A DNA stretch of 37,745 bases from Candidatus Lambdaproteobacteria bacterium RIFOXYD2_FULL_56_26 (GTDB lineage: Bacteria; SAR324; XYD2-FULL-50-16): NCBI GenBank assembly GCA_001783715.1, contig MFNF01000027.1:67290-105034 (forward strand). Direction: 5' to 3'. Made by a program: the position numbers and the translations under genes. Positions 13,485 to 32,599 of the stretch are shown piece by piece (positions within the stretch are counted from its first letter, which is position 1; each line of letters opens with the position of its first letter). The notes below the pieces were generated by a model. That model saw only the letters and a program-made list of their open reading frames with translations, searched no databases and was not told the DNA's origin.

Positions 13485-13508
13485 TTACCCCCGCCGGAGT
13501 CGAGCTTT
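13452..13508. repeat. Two near-identical 16-bp direct repeats at the NRPS-PKS 3' end
   Basis: GCTGGAGTCGAGCTTT at 13452-13467 and GCCGGAGTCGAGCTTT at 13493-13508 differ at one base and are offset by 41. The right copy encodes the last codons of the NRPS-PKS; the left lies just beyond its stop. A further partial match (CTGGAGTC) occurs at 13224-13231. It may be a small tandem duplication of the gene's tail. Confidence 0.6.
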
Positions 13509-16500
13509 GATCTCGGCGGCAATCTTGGCCACGTTGGGGTCGAAGTTCATGGTGTAATGGTTTCCCTCGACCCTGCGAATGTCGATCTCCCCGCGGCTCA
13601 GTTCCACCCAAGGTAGTTCGGGCCGCTTGGCATATTCGGCCAGCGGTTCGGTGTGCCGGAAAAAGAGGATCCGGTCCTTGCCTTTGTAGGGCTTGGGTTC
13701 GTAGCTGAACATCGCCTTCATGTGGCTGGCCACCGCCTCCAAAAAGGGCACCCCAAAGTCGGGGGGCAATAGTTCGGGCAGATTGGCTCTGCGGGCCAAT
13801 TCGGCAATGTATTGCACCTGCTCCTCGCTGTTTTGCCGGGCCAAAGTGGCTTCATTGAGTTCCAGCGCCCGCCCGAACAGCTCCTTGATGATCATCACAT
13901 TGTTTTCAAAACGGATCGGCATTTGTCCTGGTCCGGGGGTGTCGATCAAAAAGAGCAGGGAAACCTCCCTTCCCAGCTCGACCAGCCGCTGGGCCGTTTC
14001 ATAGGCAACCAAGCCGCCGAAGGAGGCACCGCCCAGGATGCAGGGACCTTCAGGGTACTTGACCAACAATTCTTCCAGGAAGCCTTGGGACATTTCCTCG
14101 ATGCTCTCAAAAGGCCGGTCCTTTCCGTCCAGTCCCCTGGCCTGGAAGCCGAAGGCACAAAGACTGTCGCCCAGCGCCCGGGCCAAGTCCCGGTAATAAA
14201 CCACATACCCGCCGCCGGTGGGGAACAGGAAAAGCGGCGGGGCGTTGACCTCTTTGGAGACCGGGACCAAAAAGCGGTACTGCTCCAATGGACGGGCTTC
14301 CGGGTGCTTTTGTGCCTCCAGATAGACCGCCAACTCACGGGGGGTAGGGTTGACCATCAACAAGGTGGCGGGCAGGGTCAGGCCAAAGGTCCGGCCCAGC
14401 TCGGCGGTGAGGTTGATGGCCATCAGAGAGTCGCCGCCCAGGTCAAAGAAATTGTCCTCCCGCTCCACCTCGGTTCGGGCCAAATACTGTCGCCAAAGGT
14501 CTAGAACCACGGCCTCCGCACTTGTCTCTGCGCTGGGGCGTACCAACCTTTCGGGGACCTGGTTGACCGCCAGGGCCAAGGATTGGACCTCCTTGAGGTG
14601 CTCCTCCACCGGGATGTTGGAAATTACCACCTGGCTGAGCCCGCTGCCCAAGGCGGCTTCCATGGCTTCCAACCCTTCTTCGGTGCCCAGTCCTTTGGAC
14701 AGCCGTTCCCGGTTGAATTGGGCCAAAGTGCCGGTCAGTTGCAGGCCGGTGGCCATACCGACCTCGCTCCAGCTGTCCCAGTTAAGGCTCAGGCAGCGGG
14801 TGGAACCGGTGACGGTTTGGGCAAACCGGTCCAAAAAGGCATTGGCTGCCCCGTAGTCGGACTGGCCAAACCCTCCGGTCAAGGCGGTGATAGATGAGAA
14901 CAGGACCAGAAAGGGCACCTTTTCTTGGTTGAGCGCCTCAAACAGCCCTAGGGTCCCTTCGACCTTGGGGGCCAAAACCGACTCGATCAGAGCCAAGGTT
15001 TTGAGTTTGATCAACCCTCCCGGAGCCGTTCCGGCCAAATGGAAGGCTCCGTCCAAGGTACCGAATTTGGCTTTTGCCTCTTCCACCGCTTTGGTGGCCC
15101 ACTGTGGGTCGTTGAGGTCCATCTTGACCCAAAGGGCCTCTGCTCCCGCCACCGCAGGTCGTTTGGCCTGTCCCTGTTGGGGGTCCCTGCTGGCCAGGAC
15201 CAGACGGGCTTGGTATCGCTCCCACAGGTGGAGACAAAGAGCGGTCCCCAAGCCGCCGGTAGCACCGGTGATCAAATAGACCCCGTCCTTTTTCAGCGGG
15301 CTGCCTTTGGGCAAGGTCCCCAGCGGTAGGTAGGCGGGGCGGAAGACCCCTTCTAGCGTGAGGGTCAGTTTGGGTTCGGTCGGTTTTTGGTTGAGCTGCT
15401 TCCAGAGCAGGGCGGGGTAACCTTTCGTCTCCAGTTCCAACTGTTGGGTCCGAAAATTTGGATGCTCCAGGGGGACGGTCAAAAAGGCCCCAGCGAAGAC
15501 CGAAAACTGAAGGTTGGATCTGCTGCCCGGCAGGTTCCGGGTCAAAAGGCGCAGGTCCAAGGAACGTCCGGTTTCCGCAAAGATTCGCACCAGATGCAGC
15601 AGCTCGGCCAACCCCTGTGCGCCGCCCGCCGGGGGCTCCAAGACCACCTGGACCTCTCCTTTGGGCAACAGGCCAAGCACCGAAGGAAGCCCCGAAAAAT
15701 CGGCCTCCAAAGGCCAAGGGACAAAGCCGAAGGCCTGCTCTTGGTGGCCCGTCGGCTCCTGGGGGCCGATCCAGAGCCGGAACTTGGGGGGCAGAGCTTC
15801 CGCTCCTTGCGGGGACCAAGGTTCCAACCTCGGTTTGTAAAGTTTGGGGCCCAGCGCAAGCAGCGGTGTCCTAGGAGTGGCTTCCACCCAGTGGCTTTCC
15901 TTGGCAAAGGGATAGGTGGGCAGGTGCAATTTTTGGATCGGTCCCCCCAGGTCCAGATTTCCCACCAACTTGGCCTCCCAAAGTCGGCCCAGTTGGCCCA
16001 AAAAGAAACGTCGGTCCGAGTCCTTGGCCAGGGCTCGGGGCAGACTTTGGACCACCAGCCGGTCCGGGGTGCAGCCTGGATGTTGTAGTGCCAAGGCGCT
16101 CAAGGTGCCGCCCGGTCCCACTTCCAAAAGACCGGTTTTTTCCTGGGCCAACAGGCAGGCCAGACCTTCGGAAAAACGGACCGTGTCCCGCAGGTGCCGG
16201 ACCCAATATTGGGGGGTGGTCACCTCCAATGGGTCGGCCCAGGTCCCGGTGACGTTGCTGATCCAGGGCAGTTTGGGGGGAGCAAAGGTTACCTTGCCCA
16301 AAACCTTGGCGAAGTCGGGCAGGATGGGGTCCAACATGGAGGAATGGAAGGCGTGGGAGGTGAAAAGACGTTTGAGCACCACCCCTTGGGCCTCCAACTT
16401 GGCGGCAAACTGTTGTACCCCTCGGGTGGGGCCCGAAACCACCAGACTGTTGGGGCCGTTGATCGCCGCCAAGCTCAGTTCCTCTTGCCCTTCCAGCCAA

Positions 16501-19500
16501 GGTGCCAAGGCCTCGGGGGAAAGGTTGAGGCTGACCATGTCTCCAGGGGGCAGCTCTTGGACCAGCCTTCCCCTCTCGCAGAGCAAAAAGAGGGCTTCTT
16601 CCAACCCCAAGGACCCGGCGGCAAAGGCGGCAGTGTATTCGCCGACGCTGTGTCCGATCAGGGCGCTGGGCCGCACCCCCAGGTGGGTCCAAAATTGGAA
16701 CAACGCCTGTTCCACACAAAAAACCGCCGGTTGGGTCAACCAGGATTGGCCCAAACGCTCCGAAGCTTGGGCCCGACGTACCGCAGCGGGGTACAGGTCC
16801 CAGATCAGGTCTTTGCCGGTCAGGTCCCCAAAAACCTGGGCACCCTTGTCCAAAGCCTTTTTAAAGACCGGTTCGGAACGGTAGAGCCCCAGGGCCATTT
16901 CAACATACTGGGTTCCTTGGCCGGGGAACATCATGGCCACCCCGGCAGGCGTAGGGTGGTTGGTTTTGGTCGGCAGATGACGTAGCTTTTGGACCACTTC
17001 CGGTGAATCTTGGGCCACCAAGTTCAAGGAATGTTCAAAAAACCCTCGGCCTTGGCCCAGGGTTTTAGCCACCGCCCTCAGGTTGAGGTTTGGGTTTCGT
17101 TCCAAATGTTGGGCCAGTCGCTCGCCCATGTCCGCCAGCGCCTCGGGGGTTTTGGCGGAAAGGACCAACAGCTGTTCGGACTCCTCTGGCTCAGGGGTTT
17201 CGGGGGCCGAGCAGGGTGGGGCCTGGGCGACCAGGGCATGGGCGTTGGTTCCGCCCAACCCAAAGCTGCTGACTGCCCCGAGCCTTTCTTTACGGGGCCA
17301 GGGCCGGGGGGTTTGGGGCACCTCGAAGGGGCCTGCCGGGAGATTGAGGGCCGGGTTTGGGGTCTGGAAGTGCAGGCTTTGGGGGATCAAACCCCGGTCA
17401 ACCATCAACGCCAACTTGATCAGCCCCGTTACCCCGGCGGCGGCATCCAGGTGCCCCAAGTTTCCTTTGGCCGAGCCCACATACAACGGGCCGATCTCGG
17501 GGCTTCTGCCGCCGTACACCGCCGCCAGACTGGCCATTTCGATCGGATCGCCCAGAGGGGTAGCGGTTCCGTGGGCTTCGATGTAGTCCACCTCAAAGGG
17601 CCGGACTCCCGCTTTGGCCAGCGCCGCTTCCAAAACTGCCTTTTGCCCGGAGAGTCCCGGAGCGGTATAACCCACCTTGTTGGCCCCGTCGTTGTTGACC
17701 GCCGTTCCCTTGAGTACCGCATAAATCCCGTCCAGGTCTTTTTGGGCGGCAGACAGCCTTTTGAGCACCACCATCCCCACCCCTTGGCCGGGGACCGTGC
17801 CTTGGGCCTTTTGGTCGAACGGACGGCAATGCCCGTCCGGCGAACCGATGCCCCCCGGTTCATAGAGGTAGCCCGATTCGGTCAACTCCACCAAAGACAC
17901 CCCGCCGGCCAAGGCCACTTCACATTCCCCCGACAAGAGCGAACGGACCGCCTGGTGGACCGCCACCAAAGAAGTGGAACAGGCCGATTGAACCACCAGC
18001 GCCGGGCCGGTGAGGTTCAACTTGTAGGAAACCCGGCTGCACAAAAAGTCCTTGTCGTTGCCCAAGGTGGCTCGAAGGTTCCCGACCCGAGCCATCAGCT
18101 CGGTGTTGGGCAAGAGGTTTTTGGTCAGGTACAGGGAGTTTCCCGAACCGCCAAAGACCCCGATCCTTCCCTCAAAGCGTACCGGATCGATCCCGGCATC
18201 TTCCAAGGCCCAATAGGCCGCTTGCAAAAACAATCTTTGTTGGGGGTCGATCAACTGCGCTTCGGCCGGGCTGACACCAAAAAATCCGGCATCAAACTCC
18301 CGCACCCCTTCGATCCAACCTCGGGCGGGAACATACCGAGGGTTTTGGGCCAGCGACCAAGGCACCCCGGCCTGTTCGAGTTGGGTAGGGTTAAAAAACC
18401 GGATCCCCTCCCGTCCCTCTTTGAGCAAGGACCAAAGGGCCTCCACTCCGGCCGCTCCGGGAAAGGAACCGGCCATGCCGATCAGGGCCACCGGTTCTTC
18501 GCTGGGGGCCAGTGGAAGGGCCAAGGTAGCTTGGAGCAGCTCGGGTCGTTTCCCGGCCAGCAAACCTGCCATGCTCAAGACATTGGGGTTTTGGAAAAGA
18601 TCGATCACCGAAAGCTCGACCCCAAAGGTTTCTTCCAGTCTCCGGTGCAGGTGGGCCAGCAGCAGCGAATCTCCATCCGCCTCAAAAAAGTTGGTTTCCA
18701 GGCTGAAGCGTCGGTGGCCCAAAAGCTCGGCCCACAGTTCGGTCACCTTTTGGGCGACCCCGTTTTCCGAGACCTGCGCAGTAGAGGCGGGCGTTTTTTC
18801 GACCGGCTGGATCTGGGCCAAGGCCTTGAGGTCGATCTTGCCGTTGGGGGTCAAGGGAAAAGCAGGCAAGGGCAACAATCGGCCGGGAACCATATGGGCG
18901 GGAAGCCTGGGCTCCAAAAAATGCCGGAGGGCGGAGGGTTCGCATGGGCCCAGGTAAAACCCCACCAGGGTCGGTCCGCTTTTTGGATCTGCCGCTAGCA
19001 ATACTTTGGCTTCGGTGACTCCGGGGGCCTGGGCCATTTGGACTTCGATCTCCCCCGGTTCGATCCGAAACCCCCGCAGTTTGATTTGCTCGTCCCCACG
19101 GCCCTGGAAATAAAGTTGCCCCTGGCTCCCAAACCGGACTTGGTCGCCGGTTTTGTACAACCGTTCGGGACCCAGCCCCAGGTCCAAGGTCAAAAATCGT
19201 TCTTGGTCCAACTCGGGCCGATTGAGGTACCCCCGAGCCAGTCCGGCCCCGCCGACATACAGCTCGCCTACCGCACCGGGCAGTTGGAGTTGTCTTTGTT
19301 CATCCAAGACATAAAGCCGGAGGTTGGCCAAAGGGCGGCCCAAGGGGACCAGTTCCTGCCCCAGCCCAAGTTCGGCCGAGCTGACGGCGATGGTGGTTTC
19401 GGTGGGGCCGTAGGCGTTAAAAAACCGACGCTTTTTCCCCCAACGGTTGACCAAGGCGGAAGAACAGGCCTCCCCTCCGGCAATGATTTTGGTCAAATCC

Positions 19501-21650
19501 GGCAAGGCGGTGTCGGGCAGGGCGGCCAGGGAGGAAGGGGTAATGAACAGGGTCGAAACTTGGTTTTCCTTGAGAATGCGAGTCAAACCGGGGCCGGGCA
19601 ACAGTTCGGCCCGAGGAGCCAACACCAGACAGGCCCCTTGGCCCAGGCAGAGGCCGATCTCAAAGATCGAAATGTCGAAGTTCAGGCTGCCCAACTGCAA
19701 CACCCGGTCCCGCAGGCTGATGCCGTAAAATTCGCCCAAGTATCCGATAAGATTTACCAATCCACGGTGCTCCAGCAAAACCCCTTTGGGCACGCCAGTG
19801 GAGCCGGAGGTATAGATCCCGTAGGCCAGTCCTTCCGGCTTGGCCCTGCCTTCGGGGGCCTGGGGGGAGAGTTCCTGGGCAAACCCTTCCGCCTGGGCAA
19901 TGTCAATGACTTGGCAAGACTCGGGCAGGAGGGGATTGTCGGTGCACAAGGCCCAATCGATTTGGGCATCTTGGACCATAAAGTAAAGACGGTCTTGGGG
20001 GTACTTGGGGTCTAGGGGTAAATAACCGGCCCCGGCCTTTTGGATGGCCAAGAGGGCCACGACCAATTCGACGCTGGGCTGGGCACAGAGGCCCACCAGA
20101 GCGTCTTGTTGCAGCCCCTTGCCGACCAGCCAATGGGCCAGCCGGTTGGCCCGTTTGTCCAATTCTGCGTAGCTGATCGCCCGGCCCCCTACCCACAAGG
20201 CGGGGGAATAGGGTGCATGGTCCAACCGCTTGGCCACCAACTCGGGGAAGGTGCAGGGCTCGATTGGCCGAATCGGCCCTGGGCCAAGCCGGTGCAGCAG
20301 TTTTTTTCTTTGCCCCGGAGTCAAGTAGGCCAACTCTCCGACCGGAAGCTCGGGACGGTTGACCAGATCGGCCAATAAGGTATCCAAACTGTCCAAGAGG
20401 CCTTTGAGCCGCTCTGCCTGGAACAAGGAGCTATTGTACTCAAAAAAGCCGGTCAATTCCCCTTGGTTGGAGGTGATCCGCAGCATCAACTCAAATTCGG
20501 TGATCTGGAGTTTTTCCTTCAGCTCCAACCCAAAGGTCCCCAGGTCCCAAAGCTCCGGTTCATCCGGGGCTTGGGTTACCTGGGGCCGGGGGGATTTGAG
20601 GAAATGGTTGGGTTCCTCCCAACCGAACACCACCTGGAAAAAGGCGGGCCTGCTGCGGTCGATCCCTTTGCCCAGTTCCTTGACCAGCACCGGATAGGGA
20701 ACTTCCTTGCGCCGCAAACTGGAGCGGACCTGGGCCTGCAACTTGGCCAAAAAATCGAGAAAACTTTCTTCAGGGTGGATCTGGGCCGGATAGGCCAAGG
20801 TATTCACAAAAAAGCCGCAGGTCCGGGCAAAGCGATTGCCGCTTCTTCCCGACACCGGGGCACCGACCAAAAAGGACTTTTGTCCGCTGTACCGCCACAA
20901 AAGCAATTGGTAGGCCGCCAGCACCAAGGTAAACATCGAAACCCCCTGGGCCTCAGCGAAATTTTGCAGCCGATGCGCCAAGGCGCTCTCAAACCGGTGG
21001 GCCACACAACCTCGGGCAAAGGAATCGGCTTTGGGGCGAGGCAGGTCTAGGGGCAGCTGGATCGGTTCGCTGGGCCCCAAAATCTCCGACCATGCGGCGA
21101 TTTCTTTTTTGGCTTTTGGCGAAGCCAAAAAGGCTTGTTGCTCCTTGACCACTTCGGAATAATCCGCACTTGGTTCGGGCAGCGGCTCTTGCAGGAGCAA
21201 GGAACGCAATTCGTCCATTACTATCATTTGGGTCCACAGGTCCCCGACGATGTGGTGCCAAACCAAGATCAGGTATTTGGGCTGCTGTTTCTCCAACACA
21301 CAAGTCCAGGCCCAAGAAAATTCCTTTTCCAAGGCAAAGGGGCGGCGCAGGCTCGAAAGGTATTGTTCCGAGAGACCCTCTTCGCCGAAACTTTCGATTT
21401 CCAAGGTTTTGAACGGCAGGGTCCAGTCTTCGTGTACTTTGCGGACCAAGATTCCTTCTTGTTTGGCAAAGGTGGACCGCAGGATCGGATGGCGTAGGGT
21501 CAAGGTGACGAGGGCCTCCCGAAGCCTTTGTAAGTCACAGTTGCCCTGGATACGCCAGAGGTACCCCACATTGTAAACCGGGCTTTGGGGATAGGCTTGG
21601 GAAAAAAAGAACAGTGCTTTTTGGCCTTCGGAGACGGTTAGATCGGACAT
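13485..21650 (-). CDS. Hybrid NRPS-PKS megasynthase, C-A-PCP-KS-AT-KR-ACP-TE
   Basis: A 2,721-residue single-protein assembly line, fully open. Condensation: HHIVGD (132-137). Adenylation: YTSGSTGVPKG from 613, NAYGPTETT, catalytic Lys 938 in NGKID; by hand alignment to GrsA its pocket reads about D-I-F-I-I-G-A-I-A-K, which matches no substrate I know. PCP Ser 995 (GDSL). Ketosynthase: Cys 1224 (SACSTS), His 1360 (EAHGTATP), His 1400. Acyltransferase: Ser 1668 (GHSVGEY) and HAFH (1766-1769), the malonyl-CoA signature. Ketoreductase: TGATGGLG just after 2125, catalytic Tyr 2266. ACP Ser 2408 (GGDSL). Thioesterase: Ser 2543 (GASFGG), Asp 2570, His 2698. No dehydratase, enoylreductase or methyltransferase. 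Expected chemistry: an amino acid, probably N-acylated through the leading C domain, extended by malonate and reduced to a 4-amino-3-hydroxy acid (statine-like), then released by the TE. No phosphopantetheinyl transferase, tailoring enzyme or exporter is visible nearby. Confidence 0.95.
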   Translation of the reverse strand: MSDLTVSEGQKALFFFSQAYPQSPVYNVGYLWRIQGNCDLQRLREALVTLTLRHPILRSTFAKQEGILVRKVHEDWTLPFKTLEIESFGEEGLSEQYLSSLRRPFALEKEFSWAWTCVLEKQQPKYLILVWHHIVGDLWTQMIVMDELRSLLLQEPLPEPSADYSEVVKEQQAFLASPKAKKEIAAWSEILGPSEPIQLPLDLPRPKADSFARGCVAHRFESALAHRLQNFAEAQGVSMFTLVLAAYQLLLWRYSGQKSFLVGAPVSGRSGNRFARTCGFFVNTLAYPAQIHPEESFLDFLAKLQAQVRSSLRRKEVPYPVLVKELGKGIDRSRPAFFQVVFGWEEPNHFLKSPRPQVTQAPDEPELWDLGTFGLELKEKLQITEFELMLRITSNQGELTGFFEYNSSLFQAERLKGLLDSLDTLLADLVNRPELPVGELAYLTPGQRKKLLHRLGPGPIRPIEPCTFPELVAKRLDHAPYSPALWVGGRAISYAELDKRANRLAHWLVGKGLQQDALVGLCAQPSVELVVALLAIQKAGAGYLPLDPKYPQDRLYFMVQDAQIDWALCTDNPLLPESCQVIDIAQAEGFAQELSPQAPEGRAKPEGLAYGIYTSGSTGVPKGVLLEHRGLVNLIGYLGEFYGISLRDRVLQLGSLNFDISIFEIGLCLGQGACLVLAPRAELLPGPGLTRILKENQVSTLFITPSSLAALPDTALPDLTKIIAGGEACSSALVNRWGKKRRFFNAYGPTETTIAVSSAELGLGQELVPLGRPLANLRLYVLDEQRQLQLPGAVGELYVGGAGLARGYLNRPELDQERFLTLDLGLGPERLYKTGDQVRFGSQGQLYFQGRGDEQIKLRGFRIEPGEIEVQMAQAPGVTEAKVLLAADPKSGPTLVGFYLGPCEPSALRHFLEPRLPAHMVPGRLLPLPAFPLTPNGKIDLKALAQIQPVEKTPASTAQVSENGVAQKVTELWAELLGHRRFSLETNFFEADGDSLLLAHLHRRLEETFGVELSVIDLFQNPNVLSMAGLLAGKRPELLQATLALPLAPSEEPVALIGMAGSFPGAAGVEALWSLLKEGREGIRFFNPTQLEQAGVPWSLAQNPRYVPARGWIEGVREFDAGFFGVSPAEAQLIDPQQRLFLQAAYWALEDAGIDPVRFEGRIGVFGGSGNSLYLTKNLLPNTELMARVGNLRATLGNDKDFLCSRVSYKLNLTGPALVVQSACSTSLVAVHQAVRSLLSGECEVALAGGVSLVELTESGYLYEPGGIGSPDGHCRPFDQKAQGTVPGQGVGMVVLKRLSAAQKDLDGIYAVLKGTAVNNDGANKVGYTAPGLSGQKAVLEAALAKAGVRPFEVDYIEAHGTATPLGDPIEMASLAAVYGGRSPEIGPLYVGSAKGNLGHLDAAAGVTGLIKLALMVDRGLIPQSLHFQTPNPALNLPAGPFEVPQTPRPWPRKERLGAVSSFGLGGTNAHALVAQAPPCSAPETPEPEESEQLLVLSAKTPEALADMGERLAQHLERNPNLNLRAVAKTLGQGRGFFEHSLNLVAQDSPEVVQKLRHLPTKTNHPTPAGVAMMFPGQGTQYVEMALGLYRSEPVFKKALDKGAQVFGDLTGKDLIWDLYPAAVRRAQASERLGQSWLTQPAVFCVEQALFQFWTHLGVRPSALIGHSVGEYTAAFAAGSLGLEEALFLLCERGRLVQELPPGDMVSLNLSPEALAPWLEGQEELSLAAINGPNSLVVSGPTRGVQQFAAKLEAQGVVLKRLFTSHAFHSSMLDPILPDFAKVLGKVTFAPPKLPWISNVTGTWADPLEVTTPQYWVRHLRDTVRFSEGLACLLAQEKTGLLEVGPGGTLSALALQHPGCTPDRLVVQSLPRALAKDSDRRFFLGQLGRLWEAKLVGNLDLGGPIQKLHLPTYPFAKESHWVEATPRTPLLALGPKLYKPRLEPWSPQGAEALPPKFRLWIGPQEPTGHQEQAFGFVPWPLEADFSGLPSVLGLLPKGEVQVVLEPPAGGAQGLAELLHLVRIFAETGRSLDLRLLTRNLPGSRSNLQFSVFAGAFLTVPLEHPNFRTQQLELETKGYPALLWKQLNQKPTEPKLTLTLEGVFRPAYLPLGTLPKGSPLKKDGVYLITGATGGLGTALCLHLWERYQARLVLASRDPQQGQAKRPAVAGAEALWVKMDLNDPQWATKAVEEAKAKFGTLDGAFHLAGTAPGGLIKLKTLALIESVLAPKVEGTLGLFEALNQEKVPFLVLFSSITALTGGFGQSDYGAANAFLDRFAQTVTGSTRCLSLNWDSWSEVGMATGLQLTGTLAQFNRERLSKGLGTEEGLEAMEAALGSGLSQVVISNIPVEEHLKEVQSLALAVNQVPERLVRPSAETSAEAVVLDLWRQYLARTEVEREDNFFDLGGDSLMAINLTAELGRTFGLTLPATLLMVNPTPRELAVYLEAQKHPEARPLEQYRFLVPVSKEVNAPPLFLFPTGGGYVVYYRDLARALGDSLCAFGFQARGLDGKDRPFESIEEMSQGFLEELLVKYPEGPCILGGASFGGLVAYETAQRLVELGREVSLLFLIDTPGPGQMPIRFENNVMIIKELFGRALELNEATLARQNSEEQVQYIAELARRANLPELLPPDFGVPFLEAVASHMKAMFSYEPKPYKGKDRILFFRHTEPLAEYAKRPELPWVELSRGEIDIRRVEGNHYTMNFDPNVAKIAAEIKARLRRG

Positions 21651-28465: not shown

Positions 28466-28508
28466 GTGCTTTCTTGGGTAAACAAAGACCAGGAGGTTTT
28501 ATAAGGAT

Positions 28509-29225
28509 ATGCCCTTTAGCACCAGTCCGAGGCGGCTCAACCTCAAAATGACCCGCCAGCCCGACGATGTCACCTGCGGCCCCACCTGCCTCCAGTCCAT
28601 TTACGATTATTATGGGGACAACATCTCGCTGGAACAGGTGATCCGGGAGGTGCCCATGCTGCGGGGCGGCGGCACCCTGGCGGCCAACTTGGGCTACCAC
28701 GCTTTGCACCGGGGCTACCAAGCGACCATCTACAGCTTTAATCTGGTGCTTTTTGATCCCAGTTGGGCCGGGCTGGGGACCGAGGACCTGCTCGACAAGT
28801 TGGACCGGCAGCAGCGGCTCAAAGACAGCCCGAAGTTCAATGCCGCCACCAAGGCCTACAAAAATTTTTTGACCGCCGGGGGGCAGTTGCGGCTCGACGA
28901 CATCACCCCCGACCTGATCCTGAATTACCTCAACCACAAGGTCCCTATTCTGACCGGGCTCTCCGCCACCTTTTTGTACCGGGCCAAAAGGGAAAACCCG
29001 GTCACCAACGAGCCGGACGACATCAAGGGCGAACCGGTCGGGCACTTTGTGCTGCTTTCGGGGTTTGACCCTTTGACCCGGAAGCTGGAGATCACCGACC
29101 CCTACCACCCCAACCCGGTCTCTACGAGCCAAAGCTACGAGGTGACCTTGGAGCATTTGGTCAACGCCATCCTTTTGGGAGTGCTGACCTATGATGCCAA
29201 TCTCTTGATCCTGAAAAAACCATGA
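28509..29225 (+). CDS. C39-like cysteine peptidase/amidase, first gene of the amidoligase operon
   Basis: A 238-residue papain-fold protein resembling peptidase C39. It has an oxyanion Gln (Q17) and nucleophile Cys 23 in RQPDDVTCGPTC, His 179 in VGHFVLLSGFD, and Asp 197 in ITDPYHPN, so the Cys-His-Asp triad is complete. It lacks a signal peptide and the transporter parts of bacteriocin-processing C39 proteins, so it probably acts in the cytoplasm as a peptidase, amidase or transferase. AGGAGG at 28491-28496 and AAGGA nearer the ATG provide ribosome binding. Its TGA overlaps the ATG of the ATP-grasp gene (ATGA at 29222), indicating coupled translation. Substrate unknown; the ligases next door suggest it cleaves or transfers their product. 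Confidence 0.78.
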   Translation: MPFSTSPRRLNLKMTRQPDDVTCGPTCLQSIYDYYGDNISLEQVIREVPMLRGGGTLAANLGYHALHRGYQATIYSFNLVLFDPSWAGLGTEDLLDKLDRQQRLKDSPKFNAATKAYKNFLTAGGQLRLDDITPDLILNYLNHKVPILTGLSATFLYRAKRENPVTNEPDDIKGEPVGHFVLLSGFDPLTRKLEITDPYHPNPVSTSQSYEVTLEHLVNAILLGVLTYDANLLILKKP

Positions 29226-30676
29226 GAAACCTGATCGTAGTTGAATCCTTGGAGCATTGGCCCAAAACCGCCGAGGGATTTGAAGTGGTCAACGCCCAGG
29301 CCTATCTGTTCCAAGAGGAATTCCAAAAGGCCAAGAACCTGCGAATCTACAACCTTTGTGCCAGCTACAGCTACCAAAGCTTTGGATATTACGTATCCCT
29401 GCTCGCTGAAGCCAGGGGGCACCGGCCTACCCCTTCGGTAGCCACCTTGATGGAGATGAAGTCCAAGCCGGCGGTGCGGCTGGCCTCCGAGGGGTTGGAC
29501 AAGGAGATCCAAAAACAGTTTGCCGGTCTCAAGTCCGAAGGGTTTGAACTTTCCATCTACTTTGGCCAAAGTCTGGCCAAAAAGTATCAACCCTTGGCCG
29601 ACCAACTGAGCCGGAGTTTTGCCGCCCCGATGTTGCGGGCTAAGTTTACTCACAAACAAAGGTGGAACCTCACTTCCGTGGGACCGGTGGGGTTGACCGA
29701 GGTCCCCCAGGACCACCTGCCGGACCTGATCAATTTCGCCCAGGCCTACTTCAACCGGCGACCGGGGAGCAAAAAGACCCGTACCAACCGGTTCTCCCTG
29801 GCCATGTTGGTCAACCCCCAGGAAAAATTCCCGCCCAGCAACGAACGGGCGCTGAACCTCTTTGCCCAAGCCGGACAAGAATTGGGCTTGGAGGTGGACC
29901 GGATCACCGCCCAGGACCAAGCCAAACTGGGGGAGTATGACGCTTTGTTCATCCGGGAAACCACGGCGGTCAACCACCATACCTTTCGATTTGCCCTCAA
30001 GGCCCAGGCCTTAGGGCTGGTGGTGATCGACGACCCCCAGTCGATCATCCGTTGCACCAACAAGGTATATTTGAGCGAACTGCTCAGCCAGCACAAAATC
30101 CCGACCCCCAAATCCCAGGTGCTCTCCAAGGTGGACCTGTTGACCCACCAAGTGCGCATCCCTTTTCCTTGTGTCCTCAAACAGCCGGACAGTTCCTTTT
30201 CCCAAGGGGTGGTCAAGGTCTCGGGGCCGGAGGAATTAAAGGAGAAGGGGCTCAAGCTGCTGGAGGAATCAGACCTGATCATCGCCCAGGAATACATGCC
30301 TACCACCTTCGACTGGCGGGTCGGGATCATCGGCGGGATGCCTCTGTTTGTTTGCCGGTACCACATGGCCAAAGGGCATTGGCAGATCTACAAAACGACC
30401 AAAGGGGGCAAACTGCTCGATGGCAAGGTGGACGTGGTGGCCCCCGAAGAGGCCCCCTACAAGCTTTTAAGCCTCGCCCAAAAGGCCGCCAAGCTGATCG
30501 GCGATGGTTTTTACGGGTTGGACATCAAAGAGCATGACGGGAAGTTTTATGTCATCGAAATCAACGACAACCCCAGCATCGAAGCGGGCTTTGAGGACCA
30601 GCTGCTCAAAAGGCGGCTGTATTCGAGGATCATGGAGGTCTTTTTGGACCGCCTGTTGCTCAAGGTCAACTCGTGA
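29222..30676 (+). CDS. RimK-like ATP-grasp ligase with RLAN N-terminal domain
   Basis: A 484-residue cytoplasmic ligase. The N-terminal ~160 residues (YSYQSFGYYVSLLAEARGH region) match what Pfam calls the RimK-like ATP-grasp N-terminal domain (RLAN), from memory. The C-terminal half is an ATP-grasp fold: FPCVLKQPDSSFSQGVVKV supplies the nucleotide Lys and flexible loop, DWRVGIIGG a core strand, and GLDIK (Asp 434) with VIEINDNPSI (Glu 446, Asn 448) the Mg-ATP ligands. RimK-type enzymes join a carboxylate, often of a peptide or amino acid, to an amine through an acyl phosphate. Both ends overlap neighbours: ATGA with the C39-like gene and GTGA with the GCS2 gene. The substrates are unknown. 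All residues expected for activity appear present. Confidence 0.88.
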   Translation: MRNLIVVESLEHWPKTAEGFEVVNAQAYLFQEEFQKAKNLRIYNLCASYSYQSFGYYVSLLAEARGHRPTPSVATLMEMKSKPAVRLASEGLDKEIQKQFAGLKSEGFELSIYFGQSLAKKYQPLADQLSRSFAAPMLRAKFTHKQRWNLTSVGPVGLTEVPQDHLPDLINFAQAYFNRRPGSKKTRTNRFSLAMLVNPQEKFPPSNERALNLFAQAGQELGLEVDRITAQDQAKLGEYDALFIRETTAVNHHTFRFALKAQALGLVVIDDPQSIIRCTNKVYLSELLSQHKIPTPKSQVLSKVDLLTHQVRIPFPCVLKQPDSSFSQGVVKVSGPEELKEKGLKLLEESDLIIAQEYMPTTFDWRVGIIGGMPLFVCRYHMAKGHWQIYKTTKGGKLLDGKVDVVAPEEAPYKLLSLAQKAAKLIGDGFYGLDIKEHDGKFYVIEINDNPSIEAGFEDQLLKRRLYSRIMEVFLDRLLLKVNS

Positions 30677-31896
30677 GCGGGCTGCACTGGTTTGAGGCCT
30701 ACGGGGTGGAAATCGAGTACATGGTGGTGGGCCAAGAGGACCTCAAGGTTAGGCCCATCGCCGATTTGGTGCTGACCCAGCTGTCCGGAGAGATCACCGA
30801 GGAGGTGAGCATGGGCGAGGTTGCTTGGTCCAACGAATTGGTGCTGCATGTCCTGGAACTCAAGGGCGACGGCCCCAAGGCGGACCTCAAGGCCTTGGAA
30901 CTGGAATTTGTTAAGGCGGTGCAGGCCCAGAACCGGCTGTTGGCCCAACAGGGGGCCAAGCTTTTGCCCACCGCCATGCACCCTTTGATGGAACCTTTGT
31001 CTGAAACCCGGCTTTGGCCCCACGGCAATCGGGACATCTACCAAGCCTACGACCGGCTGTTTGGCTGCCATGGCCACGGCTGGTCCAACCTGCAATCGGT
31101 GCACATCAATCTGCCCTTCCAAGGAGAGCGGGAGTTCCACCGGCTGCACCAGTCGATCCGTCTGGTCTTGCCCCTGTTGCCCGCCTTGGCGGCGAGCAGC
31201 CCCCTGGAAGAAGGGCGGTTGACCGGCTGGTTGGACAACCGGCTGGAACATTACCGGAACAACCAAACCAAAATCCCCTCCCTGACGGGGCTGGTGATCC
31301 CCGAAGAGGTGTCGGGGGTGGCGGACTACCAGGAAAAAATCCTCAAACGGATGTACCGGGACTTGGCCCCCTACGACCAAGAAGGGATCTTGTGTGAAGA
31401 ATGGGTCAACAGCCGGGGGGCCATTGCCCGGTTTGACCGGGGGGCGATCGAGATCAGGCTTTTGGACTCCCAGGAGTGCCCGGCAGCGGACTTGGCGATG
31501 GTGGCCTTGGTGGTATCCTTGGTCCAGGACCTGAGCGAGCGGGAGTTGCCCACCGGGCTTACGGAACAGGAATTGTTGCCGATTTTACTGGCAACGATGC
31601 AAGAAGGCGGAGAGGCCTGGGTGGACCACCCCCGGTACCTGGAGGCCCTGGGCCTGCCGCCCCAGGGAGTTAAGGCCCAAAAGCTTTGGGAACAGCTTTT
31701 CCAAGGCCTTTTGGGCCGTGGGTACTGCCTGGACCCCTTTGCCAAGACCTTGGAAAAAATGCTTTCCCTGGGCACCTTGGCCCACCGGATCACCCAAGCG
31801 GTTGGCCCCGACCCTGGTCCGGGGAGGATCCTGGAGGTGTACCACCGTCTGGGTCAATGTCTGGAAGAGAACCGACTGTATGAACCTTTTGCTTAG
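30673..31896 (+). CDS. GCS2-type carboxylate-amine ligase (glutamate-cysteine ligase family 2)
   Basis: A 407-residue protein of the glutamine-synthetase-fold GCS2/YbdK group. It starts at a GTG overlapping the previous TGA (GTGA). The opening GLHWFEAYGVEIEYMVV contains the GxExE metal-binding motif; HGWSNLQSVHINLPF and AIEIRLLDSQECPAADLA fit later metal- and substrate-binding strands. Family enzymes activate a carboxylate, typically the gamma-carboxyl of glutamate, with ATP and couple it to an amine. True glutathione synthesis is not implied: the partner here is an RLAN ATP-grasp enzyme, not a glutathione synthetase. The stop lies inside the next gene (17-base overlap). Substrates unknown. 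Confidence 0.85.
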   Translation: MSGLHWFEAYGVEIEYMVVGQEDLKVRPIADLVLTQLSGEITEEVSMGEVAWSNELVLHVLELKGDGPKADLKALELEFVKAVQAQNRLLAQQGAKLLPTAMHPLMEPLSETRLWPHGNRDIYQAYDRLFGCHGHGWSNLQSVHINLPFQGEREFHRLHQSIRLVLPLLPALAASSPLEEGRLTGWLDNRLEHYRNNQTKIPSLTGLVIPEEVSGVADYQEKILKRMYRDLAPYDQEGILCEEWVNSRGAIARFDRGAIEIRLLDSQECPAADLAMVALVVSLVQDLSERELPTGLTEQELLPILLATMQEGGEAWVDHPRYLEALGLPPQGVKAQKLWEQLFQGLLGRGYCLDPFAKTLEKMLSLGTLAHRITQAVGPDPGPGRILEVYHRLGQCLEENRLYEPFA

Positions 31897-32599
31897 TTGC
31901 GAACATGGGGGCAACCGAGTCCCCCCCGGTTTGGTAGGGTACTTTGACGGCCCGACCTTGGCTTTGCTTGAGACCCACCGGGGCTACGATCCGGGGGCCT
32001 TGGGCCTCGCCTTGGGGCTCAAGGCCGCTTTGGGAGCGCCGTTGTTTTATTCCAAAACCAGCCGCTTGGTAGTGGACCTCAACCGGGACGGAAAAAGCCC
32101 CGAGGTTTTTGGTCCCAGTTTTTTGGCCCCCACCTGCCCGTCGGAGCTGCGCCCCAAGCTGTTGGCTCGGTACCACCGGCCCTACCGGGAGAAGGTGGCC
32201 CAAGAGGTGGCGGCCCTGGTGGCCCAAGGCCCCTTGTTGCACCTCTCGGTCCACAGCTTTACCCCGGTTTGGCAGGGACAGGCCCGCAAAACCCAGGTGG
32301 GGCTGTTGTTCGACCCGAAGCGCCAGGCCGAGTCGGTCTTGGCAGGGCTTTGGCGGCAGGCCCTCAAAGCCCGCCTGGAGGGGTACGAGGTTCACCTGAA
32401 TCGGCCTTACAAAGGCACCTCCGATGGATTGACCCGCACCTTGCGGCGGTTGCACCCCGACCCTGGGTACCTGGGGCTGGAGTTGGAGGTGCGCAACGAC
32501 CTTTTGACCGACCCAAGGCACAAGGGGGAATGGATTGAAGTGGTCAGCCAAACCCTGGCCCAGACCTTGGCTCTTTGGGAGAAACAGGAACTACCTTGA
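31880..32599 (+). CDS. N-formylglutamate amidohydrolase-like enzyme
   Basis: A 239-residue zinc-hydrolase-type protein. The ATG at 31880 lies inside the end of the GCS2 gene and gives MNLLLSCEHGGNRVP, the family's opening motif. ETHRGYDPGA, RLVVDLNRD and LSVHSFTPVW match further conserved blocks, with His and Asp residues suited to metal binding. N-formylglutamate amidohydrolase removes formate from N-formylglutamate in histidine breakdown, but no hut genes are nearby. Encoded last in an amidoligase operon, it more likely hydrolyses a glutamyl-type amide or N-acyl group on the operon's product. The longer open frame from 31718 is not used because its extra N-terminus overlaps GCS2 and lacks family similarity. 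Confidence 0.85.
   Translation: MNLLLSCEHGGNRVPPGLVGYFDGPTLALLETHRGYDPGALGLALGLKAALGAPLFYSKTSRLVVDLNRDGKSPEVFGPSFLAPTCPSELRPKLLARYHRPYREKVAQEVAALVAQGPLLHLSVHSFTPVWQGQARKTQVGLLFDPKRQAESVLAGLWRQALKARLEGYEVHLNRPYKGTSDGLTRTLRRLHPDPGYLGLELEVRNDLLTDPRHKGEWIEVVSQTLAQTLALWEKQELP

What the first reader, a model, noticed from the sequence alone, without database searches (positions are those of the whole stretch)
28509..32599. Four-gene, fully overlapping amidoligase-amidohydrolase operon
C39-like peptidase, RLAN/RimK ATP-grasp ligase, GCS2 ligase and N-formylglutamate amidohydrolase-like enzyme are joined by ATGA, GTGA and 17-base overlaps. The sequence shows intact catalytic residues in the peptidase and ATP-grasp enzyme and the expected family motifs in the other two. 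ATP-grasp and GCS2 enzymes form amide bonds; C39-like and NFGAH-like enzymes break them. I infer a pathway that builds, trims and recycles a short glutamyl or peptide-like metabolite, or adds and removes residues on a protein. Neither substrate nor product is evident, and no glutathione, histidine-degradation or bacteriocin genes offer a conventional explanation.
Basis: partly seen in the sequence, partly recalled or inferred. Interest (0 to 1): 0.82.

Follow-up and report, generated by a model that had tools for sequence, protein, structure and literature searches.

The report
Conserved two-ligase, two-hydrolase bacterial operon
Four overlapping genes, found in the same order in at least a dozen bacterial phyla, encode two enzymes that form amide bonds and two that cut them; they most likely make and recycle an unknown small glutamate-containing molecule (a protein tag is the main alternative), and nobody has shown what it is.

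Summary
Four overlapping same-strand genes (28509-32599) encode a C39-like cysteine peptidase, an RLAN-RimK ATP-grasp ligase, a GCS2 carboxylate-amine ligase and an FGase/NFGAH-type hydrolase. The order is conserved: 42 of 42 full cassettes among 80 fetched relatives. Predicted catalytic residues are (near-)invariant. Two planctomycete genomes fuse the two ligases into one polypeptide, so they very probably act on one substrate. In 114 RLAN loci sampled evenly from three phyla, the second acylating enzyme is GCS2 (47) or a GNAT acetyltransferase (66), with one locus holding both and two holding neither. The window's genome carries one locus of each kind. NFGAH never occurred beside RLAN without GCS2. 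No precursor peptide, LysW carrier or further conserved gene was found, and genuine glutathione-type enzymes lie elsewhere in the genome, so RiPP, LysW-carrier and glutathione explanations fail or weaken. Best reading: a cytosolic two-step ligase pathway making a capped glutamyl peptide, logically like N-acetylglutaminylglutamine amide or glutathione synthesis, with dedicated hydrolases. A reversible protein modification like RimK/RimB remains the main rival. Substrate and product are unproven. In-silico prediction of such amidoligase systems dates from 2009 (Iyer et al., not readable here): a variant of a known, uncharacterised kind.

The parts
28509..29225 (+). C39-like (papain-fold) cysteine peptidase, 238 aa; Cys23-His179-Asp197 with Gln17; no signal peptide evident by eye
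   Evidence: PF13529/PF03412; Q17, C23, H179, D197 invariant in 56/56; AlphaFold2 pLDDT 94.8, best PDB match C39 double-glycine peptidase 6mpz, also phytochelatin synthase 2bu3
29222..30676 (+). RLAN-RimK ATP-grasp ligase, 484 aa (RLAN about residues 25-165, ATP-grasp about 278-455)
   Evidence: PF14401 145 bits, PF08443; K281, K320, D434, E446, N450 invariant in 63/63; model pLDDT 87.6, best PDB match ArgX:LysW:Glu 3vpb, then RimK
30673..31896 (+). GCS2-family carboxylate-amine ligase, 407 aa, GTG start
   Evidence: PF04107 103 bits; E13, E15, E55, E62, E260, R262 invariant in 53/53; profile matches YbdK 1r8g
31880..32599 (+). FGase/NFGAH-family hydrolase, 239 aa
   Evidence: PF05013 100 bits; H9, D37, H125, E151, E203 invariant in 32/32; closest solved relative Atu2144, 2odf
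28488..28508 (+). Purine-rich ribosome-binding region (ccaggaggttttataaggat) in front of the first gene, 43 bases after the stop of the OmpA/MotB-like gene
   Evidence: Sequence read directly; no sigma-70-like promoter found by consensus scan

Best explanation
The four genes are one cytosolic cassette made of two ligase-hydrolase pairs: [C39-like peptidase + RLAN-RimK ligase] and [GCS2 ligase + NFGAH hydrolase]. The two ligases act one after the other on a shared small substrate. RLAN-RimK joins an amino acid (probably glutamate or similar) through its amine to a carboxylate. GCS2 joins a glutamate-like carboxylate to an amine. GCS2 thus does the amine-acylating job that a GNAT enzyme does in the sister systems. 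The product is predicted to be a small, capped, glutamate-containing peptide or amide, made by the logic of N-acetylglutaminylglutamine amide synthesis (GNAT + ATP-grasp) or glutathione synthesis (GCS + ATP-grasp). C39 and NFGAH would turn the product over or trim it. Shown: gene order, intact predicted catalytic residues, ligase-ligase fusion, near-exclusive partner choice, the NFGAH-only-with-GCS2 pattern, and no carrier or precursor gene found. Inferred: substrate identity, order of reactions, hydrolase roles, small molecule rather than protein as target.
For: Fixed order: 42/42 full cassettes in order on one strand; 66/69, 67/71 and 41/43 junctions within 100 bp or overlapping. RLAN-RimK-GCS2 fused in one 1001-1022 aa protein in two planctomycete genomes, parallel to bifunctional GshF (mentioned in PMC4574134). 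GCS2 or GNAT beside RLAN in 112 of 114 evenly sampled loci, both in 1. GNAT::RLAN-RimK fusions exist, the same GNAT + ATP-grasp pairing as NAGGN synthetase, whose GNAT region gives weak hits here (TIGR03103; enzyme described in PMC8070244). NFGAH beside RLAN without GCS2: 0 of 114; a GCS2-NFGAH pair exists without RLAN or C39 (G072); C39 + RLAN without GCS2 in 5 of 80 loci. No further conserved neighbour and no conserved small ORF. No LysW in 14/16 genomes including the own one. Three of the four families have known members acting on amino-acid-sized substrates (established knowledge).
Against: RimK itself modifies ribosomal protein S6, and ArgX/LysX (best structural match) act on a protein carrier, so a protein target is equally compatible with the fold. 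The closest C39 structures cut peptides. There is no tailoring, transport or regulatory gene, which a metabolite pathway might be expected to have. NFGAH is missing beside the locus in about 40% of GCS2-type loci. The GNAT/GCS2 split may reflect a single ancient divergence: an AU test does not reject one GNAT clade (p 0.51), so the 114 loci are not independent.
Confidence: 0.45

Rival explanations
1. Reversible protein modification: RLAN-RimK adds glutamate-like residues to a conserved protein (RimK style), GCS2 extends or caps the tag, and C39 and NFGAH remove it (RimB style).
For: RimK adds Glu to ribosomal protein S6 and RimB removes it (PMC12239564). Best structural match is ArgX bound to a protein carrier. 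The C39 fold matches polypeptide-cutting enzymes. The GNAT of the sister system scores close to RimI, a ribosomal protein acetyltransferase (84.1 bits against a cut-off of 86.4). No metabolite genes are linked.
Against: GCS2 and FGase families are known for amino-acid-sized substrates (established knowledge). No conserved substrate protein is encoded nearby. The RLAN-RimK is not within the curated RimK subfamily cut-off (69.7 against 143.4 bits).
Confidence: 0.3
2. Carrier-protein (amino-group carrier, LysW-like) biosynthesis: substrates are built on a small protein by an ArgX/LysX-like ligase.
For: ArgX:LysW:Glu is the top structural match of the ligase; TIGR02144 LysX is its best NCBIfam hit.
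Against: LysW is absent from the own genome and from 14 of 16 cassette genomes searched. No conserved small ORF at the locus.
Confidence: 0.06
3. Ribosomal peptide (graspetide or similar): the ATP-grasp enzyme modifies a precursor peptide and the C39 peptidase removes its leader.
For: C39 peptidases and ATP-grasp ligases both occur in RiPP clusters (PMC8939145).
Against: No conserved short ORF within 1.5 kb on either side across the loci; the C39 is a stand-alone protein with no transporter beside it.
Confidence: 0.04
4. An alternative glutathione or gamma-glutamyl-cysteine pathway.
For: GCS2 plus ATP-grasp is the enzyme pair of glutathione synthesis, and the fold search also hits phytochelatin synthase.
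Against: The operon GCS2 fails all glutamate-cysteine ligase equivalog cut-offs. The genome has a plant-type GshA-like gene (TIGR01436, 341 bits, below its 463 cut-off) and a GshB-like gene (PF02955, 4e-47) elsewhere.
Confidence: 0.05

Closest known systems
RLAN (PF14401) amidoligase systems predicted in silico (Iyer et al. 2009, Mol Biosyst 5:1636; cited in PMC10318531 for GNAT::DUF3335 fusions)
   Same: RLAN-RimK ligase with a papain-like C39 peptidase and a second acylating enzyme
   Different: Window type has GCS2 + NFGAH and a stand-alone C39 in place of GNAT::DUF3335. Whether the 2009 paper already lists this version could not be checked (not held).
NAGGN synthesis (Ngg/AsnO/peptidase; PMC8070244, Sagot 2010)
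   Same: Acylating enzyme coupled to an ATP-grasp ligase plus a peptidase, in a compact operon making a capped dipeptide
   Different: Different ATP-grasp family, no asparagine-synthetase-like gene, GCS2 instead of GNAT in the window
GshA/GshB and bifunctional GshF (glutathione)
   Same: GCS-type ligase followed by an ATP-grasp ligase; natural fusion of the two
   Different: Operon GCS2 is outside the GCL equivalogs; fusion order reversed (ATP-grasp first); extra C39 and NFGAH
RimK/RimB (S6 glutamylation and its removal)
   Same: RimK-like ATP-grasp ligase paired with a dedicated peptidase
   Different: Peptidase is C39-like, not a retropepsin; additional RLAN domain, GCS2 and NFGAH
HutG / N-formylglutamate amidohydrolase
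   Same: FGase fold and conserved His/Glu residues
   Different: 23 bits against a 279-bit HutG cut-off; not in a histidine-degradation locus

Membership tests
RLAN-RimK (PF14401 + ATP-grasp) | RLAN domain over the curated cut-off, followed by an ATP-grasp domain with catalytic residues | tested here: met
   144.9 bits against 25; RimK 32.9 against 21; residues invariant
RimK subfamily (TIGR00768) alpha-L-glutamate ligase | Score over the curated cut-off | tested here: not met
   69.7 against 143.4 bits
GCS2 (PF04107) | Domain over cut-off with metal-binding glutamates | tested here: met
   102.9 bits against 21; E13, E15, E55, E62, E260 invariant
Glutamate-cysteine ligase (GshA-type equivalogs) | Over any GCL equivalog cut-off | tested here: not met
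   Best 54.7 bits (TIGR02050 subfamily, cut-off 176); all GCL equivalogs lower
FGase/NFGAH (PF05013) | Domain over cut-off with conserved His/Glu residues | tested here: met
   99.8 bits against 28.9
HutG N-formylglutamate deformylase | TIGR02017 cut-off | tested here: not met
   23.1 against 278.75 bits
C39 peptidase | Cys-His-Asp triad with oxyanion Gln and papain-like fold | tested here: met
C39 ABC-transporter leader peptidase | Fusion or linkage to an ABC transporter | tested here: not met
   238 aa stand-alone; no conserved transporter neighbour
RiPP/graspetide cluster | Conserved precursor peptide gene | tested here: not met
   No short ORF conserved beyond close relatives
LysW carrier pathway | LysW present | tested here: not met
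   Absent in own genome and in 14/16 genomes
NAGGN system | TIGR03103 GNAT::ATP-grasp synthetase in the cassette | tested here: not met
   Not among hits of the cassette proteins
RimK/RimB | Glutamylation of S6 | not testable with these tools
   Needs proteomics
Anti-phage defence | PADLOC model hit | tested here: not met
   No hits

The most novel reading that the evidence does not exclude
The cassette is a previously unknown, reversible protein modification spread over a dozen or more phyla: two ligases build a short glutamyl tag on a conserved cytosolic protein, and the C39-like and NFGAH-like hydrolases edit or remove it, with GNAT acetylation as an alternative cap in the sister system.
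Probability: 0.2. Interest if true: 0.85.

Novelty: new variant of a known kind. Interest (0 to 1): 0.52.

Why it matters
RLAN systems were found in 26% of sampled Planctomycetota, 20% of Pseudomonadota and 12% of Bacteroidota genomes, yet no product is known. If the best reading holds, a common bacterial metabolite, perhaps an osmolyte or redox/storage peptide, is still undiscovered. The exchange of GCS2 for GNAT and the ligase fusion reduce the question to two assayable ligases and one metabolomics comparison.

Tried and rejected
RiPP precursor search: nothing conserved. Extra conserved partner genes: none beyond close relatives. LysW carrier: absent in most genomes. Glutathione: the operon GCS2 is not GCL-like and GSH-type enzymes lie elsewhere. 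Defence: no hits. A first count called 20 RLAN loci 'solo'; a strand-independent recount showed nearly all have a divergent GNAT::DUF3335 gene, so the solo class was an artefact. A claim of strict GNAT/GCS2 exclusivity was corrected after fetching the remaining planctomycete loci: one of 114 has both, plus two among the 80 non-random loci. A claim that GNAT replaced GCS2 inside the GCS2 clade was dropped because the AU test does not reject a single GNAT clade. Gene-tree congruence (Mantel r 0.36-0.64) shows co-inheritance but mixes vertical descent with linkage, so it is little weighed. Literature: Iyer 2009 is not held; no experimental paper on this cassette was found.

Full report
OBSERVATION. 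The four genes are present as described: C39-like 28509-29225, RLAN-RimK 29222-30676 (ATGA), GCS2 30673-31896 (GTGA), NFGAH 31880-32599 (17-base overlap). All four domain assignments pass Pfam cut-offs. They lie between an OmpA/MotB-like gene (43 bases before) and a prolyl-tRNA synthetase gene (72 bases after). A clear ribosome-binding stretch precedes the first gene; no sigma-70-like promoter matched.

CONSERVATION. A profile of RLAN-RimK found at least 583 candidate loci in a collection of bacterial and archaeal species genomes; 80 were fetched. By record title they come from Bacteroidota, Balneolota, Ignavibacteriota, Planctomycetota, Verrucomicrobiota, Omnitrophota, Sumerlaeota, Tectomicrobia, Nitrospirota, Spirochaetota, Pseudomonadota, Desulfobacterota, Acidobacteriota, Fibrobacterota and a candidate-phyla-radiation genome. 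All four genes occur in 42 of the 80, always in the window's order on one strand; many others are cut by contig ends or lack a detected NFGAH. At least one apparent NFGAH absence (L043) was a divergent copy. Outside the four genes nothing is conserved except among close relatives.

UNBIASED SAMPLING. In 148 Planctomycetota genomes RLAN occurs in 39. Of these, P0001-like C39 is adjacent in 28, GCS2 in 30 and NFGAH in 18 by the first family searches; none of 20 RLAN-negative genomes has that C39 (Fisher p 3e-8). Further samples: 52 loci in 249 Pseudomonadota genomes and 23 loci in 198 Bacteroidota genomes. All neighbourhoods were then read. Of 114 loci, 47 have GCS2, 66 have GNAT and/or the C39-like DUF3335 domain, one has both and two have neither; 27 have NFGAH, all with GCS2. 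The three samples differ: GCS2 type dominates in Planctomycetota and Bacteroidota, GNAT type in Pseudomonadota.

MODULES. GNAT is often fused to DUF3335, which aligns with the window's C39 family by profile comparison (E 8.5e-7) with the same Cys, His and Asp, and sometimes to RLAN-RimK itself. Two planctomycete genomes carry an RLAN-RimK-GCS2 fusion. One genome has a GCS2-NFGAH pair without RLAN or C39 (G072). Five of 80 loci have C39 + RLAN with no GCS2, though some may be cut by contig ends. The window's genome carries a second, GNAT-type locus with RLAN and the ATP-grasp domain as separate genes (C66). The cassette is therefore read as two ligase-hydrolase pairs, C39 + RLAN-RimK and GCS2 + NFGAH.

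PHYLOGENY. In a maximum-likelihood tree the GCS2-type RLANs, window included, fall in one strongly supported set that mixes phyla (e.g. Acidobacteriota with Planctomycetota), which suggests transfer as a unit; the window protein sits on a long branch. The tree needs two changes of partner, but an AU test does not reject one clade of all GNAT types (p 0.51), so partner exchange may be a single old event.

ENZYMES. Predicted catalytic positions are invariant in C39 (Q17, C23, H179, D197; 56/56), RLAN-RimK (K281, K320, D434, E446, N450; 63/63) and GCS2 (E13, E15, E55, E62, E260; 53/53), and invariant or nearly so in NFGAH (H9, D37, H125, E151, E203 in 32/32; E8 and H121 in 31/32). AlphaFold2 models are confident (pLDDT 94.8 and 87.6). 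C39 best matches double-glycine leader peptidases and, more weakly, phytochelatin synthase. RLAN-RimK best matches ArgX bound to LysW and Glu, then RimK and D-Ala ligases. GCS2 matches YbdK; NFGAH matches Atu2144.

WHAT IT IS NOT. Glutathione: the operon GCS2 fails GCL models, while a plant-type GshA-like gene and a GshB-like gene lie elsewhere. HutG: 23 against 279 bits. RiPP: no precursor. LysW carrier: absent from the own genome and from 14 of 16 genomes. Defence: no PADLOC hit.

MECHANISM. The fusion and the overlaps indicate consecutive action of the two ligases. A GNAT acylates amines, and GCS2 also acylates an amine (with a glutamate-like carboxylate), so the near-exclusive choice between them suggests the same job, capping an amine. 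NAGGN synthetase couples a GNAT to an ATP-grasp domain to make an acetylated dipeptide (PMC8070244; that Ngg's second domain is ATP-grasp is from my own knowledge of the family), and glutathione synthesis couples GCS to ATP-grasp. A small capped glutamyl peptide is therefore favoured (0.45). RimK/RimB-like protein tagging (PMC12239564) is the main rival (0.30). The substrate remains unknown.

NOVELTY. PMC10318531 notes DUF3335-GNAT fusions and refers to Iyer et al. 2009 for GNATs as possible peptide ligases; that 2009 paper, which I recall as the origin of the RLAN family, is not held. The kind is thus known as a prediction; the GCS2-NFGAH variant, the partner rule and the fusion may be new. 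No experimental study was found in the library searched.

Noticed in passing
G000 contig C66; L012:7733-10204 (-): Second RLAN system in the same genome: separate RLAN (212 aa), RimK-like ATP-grasp (291 aa) and GNAT (318 aa) genes; family members G006 and G003 have the same arrangement, G006 with GNAT::DUF3335.
   Followed up: partly
window 13485-21650 (-): Hybrid NRPS-PKS megasynthase (C-A-PP-KS-AT-KR-PP-TE, 2721 aa); no link to the four-gene cassette was seen in relatives.
   Followed up: no
L103:3054-6059 (-) and L104:3387-6455 (-): RLAN-RimK-GCS2 fused in a single 1001-1022 aa protein in two Planctomycetota genomes.
   Followed up: yes
L111:6121-8231 (-): GCS2-NFGAH pair without RLAN or C39 in a planctomycete genome (G072).
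   Followed up: partly
L130:4990-6105 and homologues in 14 Pseudomonadota loci: DUF2817 gene recurs near GNAT::DUF3335-RLAN loci on the opposite strand; may be synteny of relatives.
   Followed up: no
L079:2080-6273: GNAT and RLAN-RimK followed by a DAP/ornithine-type decarboxylase and a DHDPS-family gene; a possible substrate hint from one locus only.
   Followed up: no
L016 (Legionella adelaidensis 9-kb plasmid record), 2-3232: RLAN-GCS2-NFGAH set on a small circular record that also carries fur, bamE and dapF, so the record may be a chromosomal piece labelled as a plasmid.
   Followed up: no
L218, L031, L041: Rare loci with both GCS2 and a GNAT gene within 2.5 kb of RLAN; the GNAT may be unrelated.
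   Followed up: no
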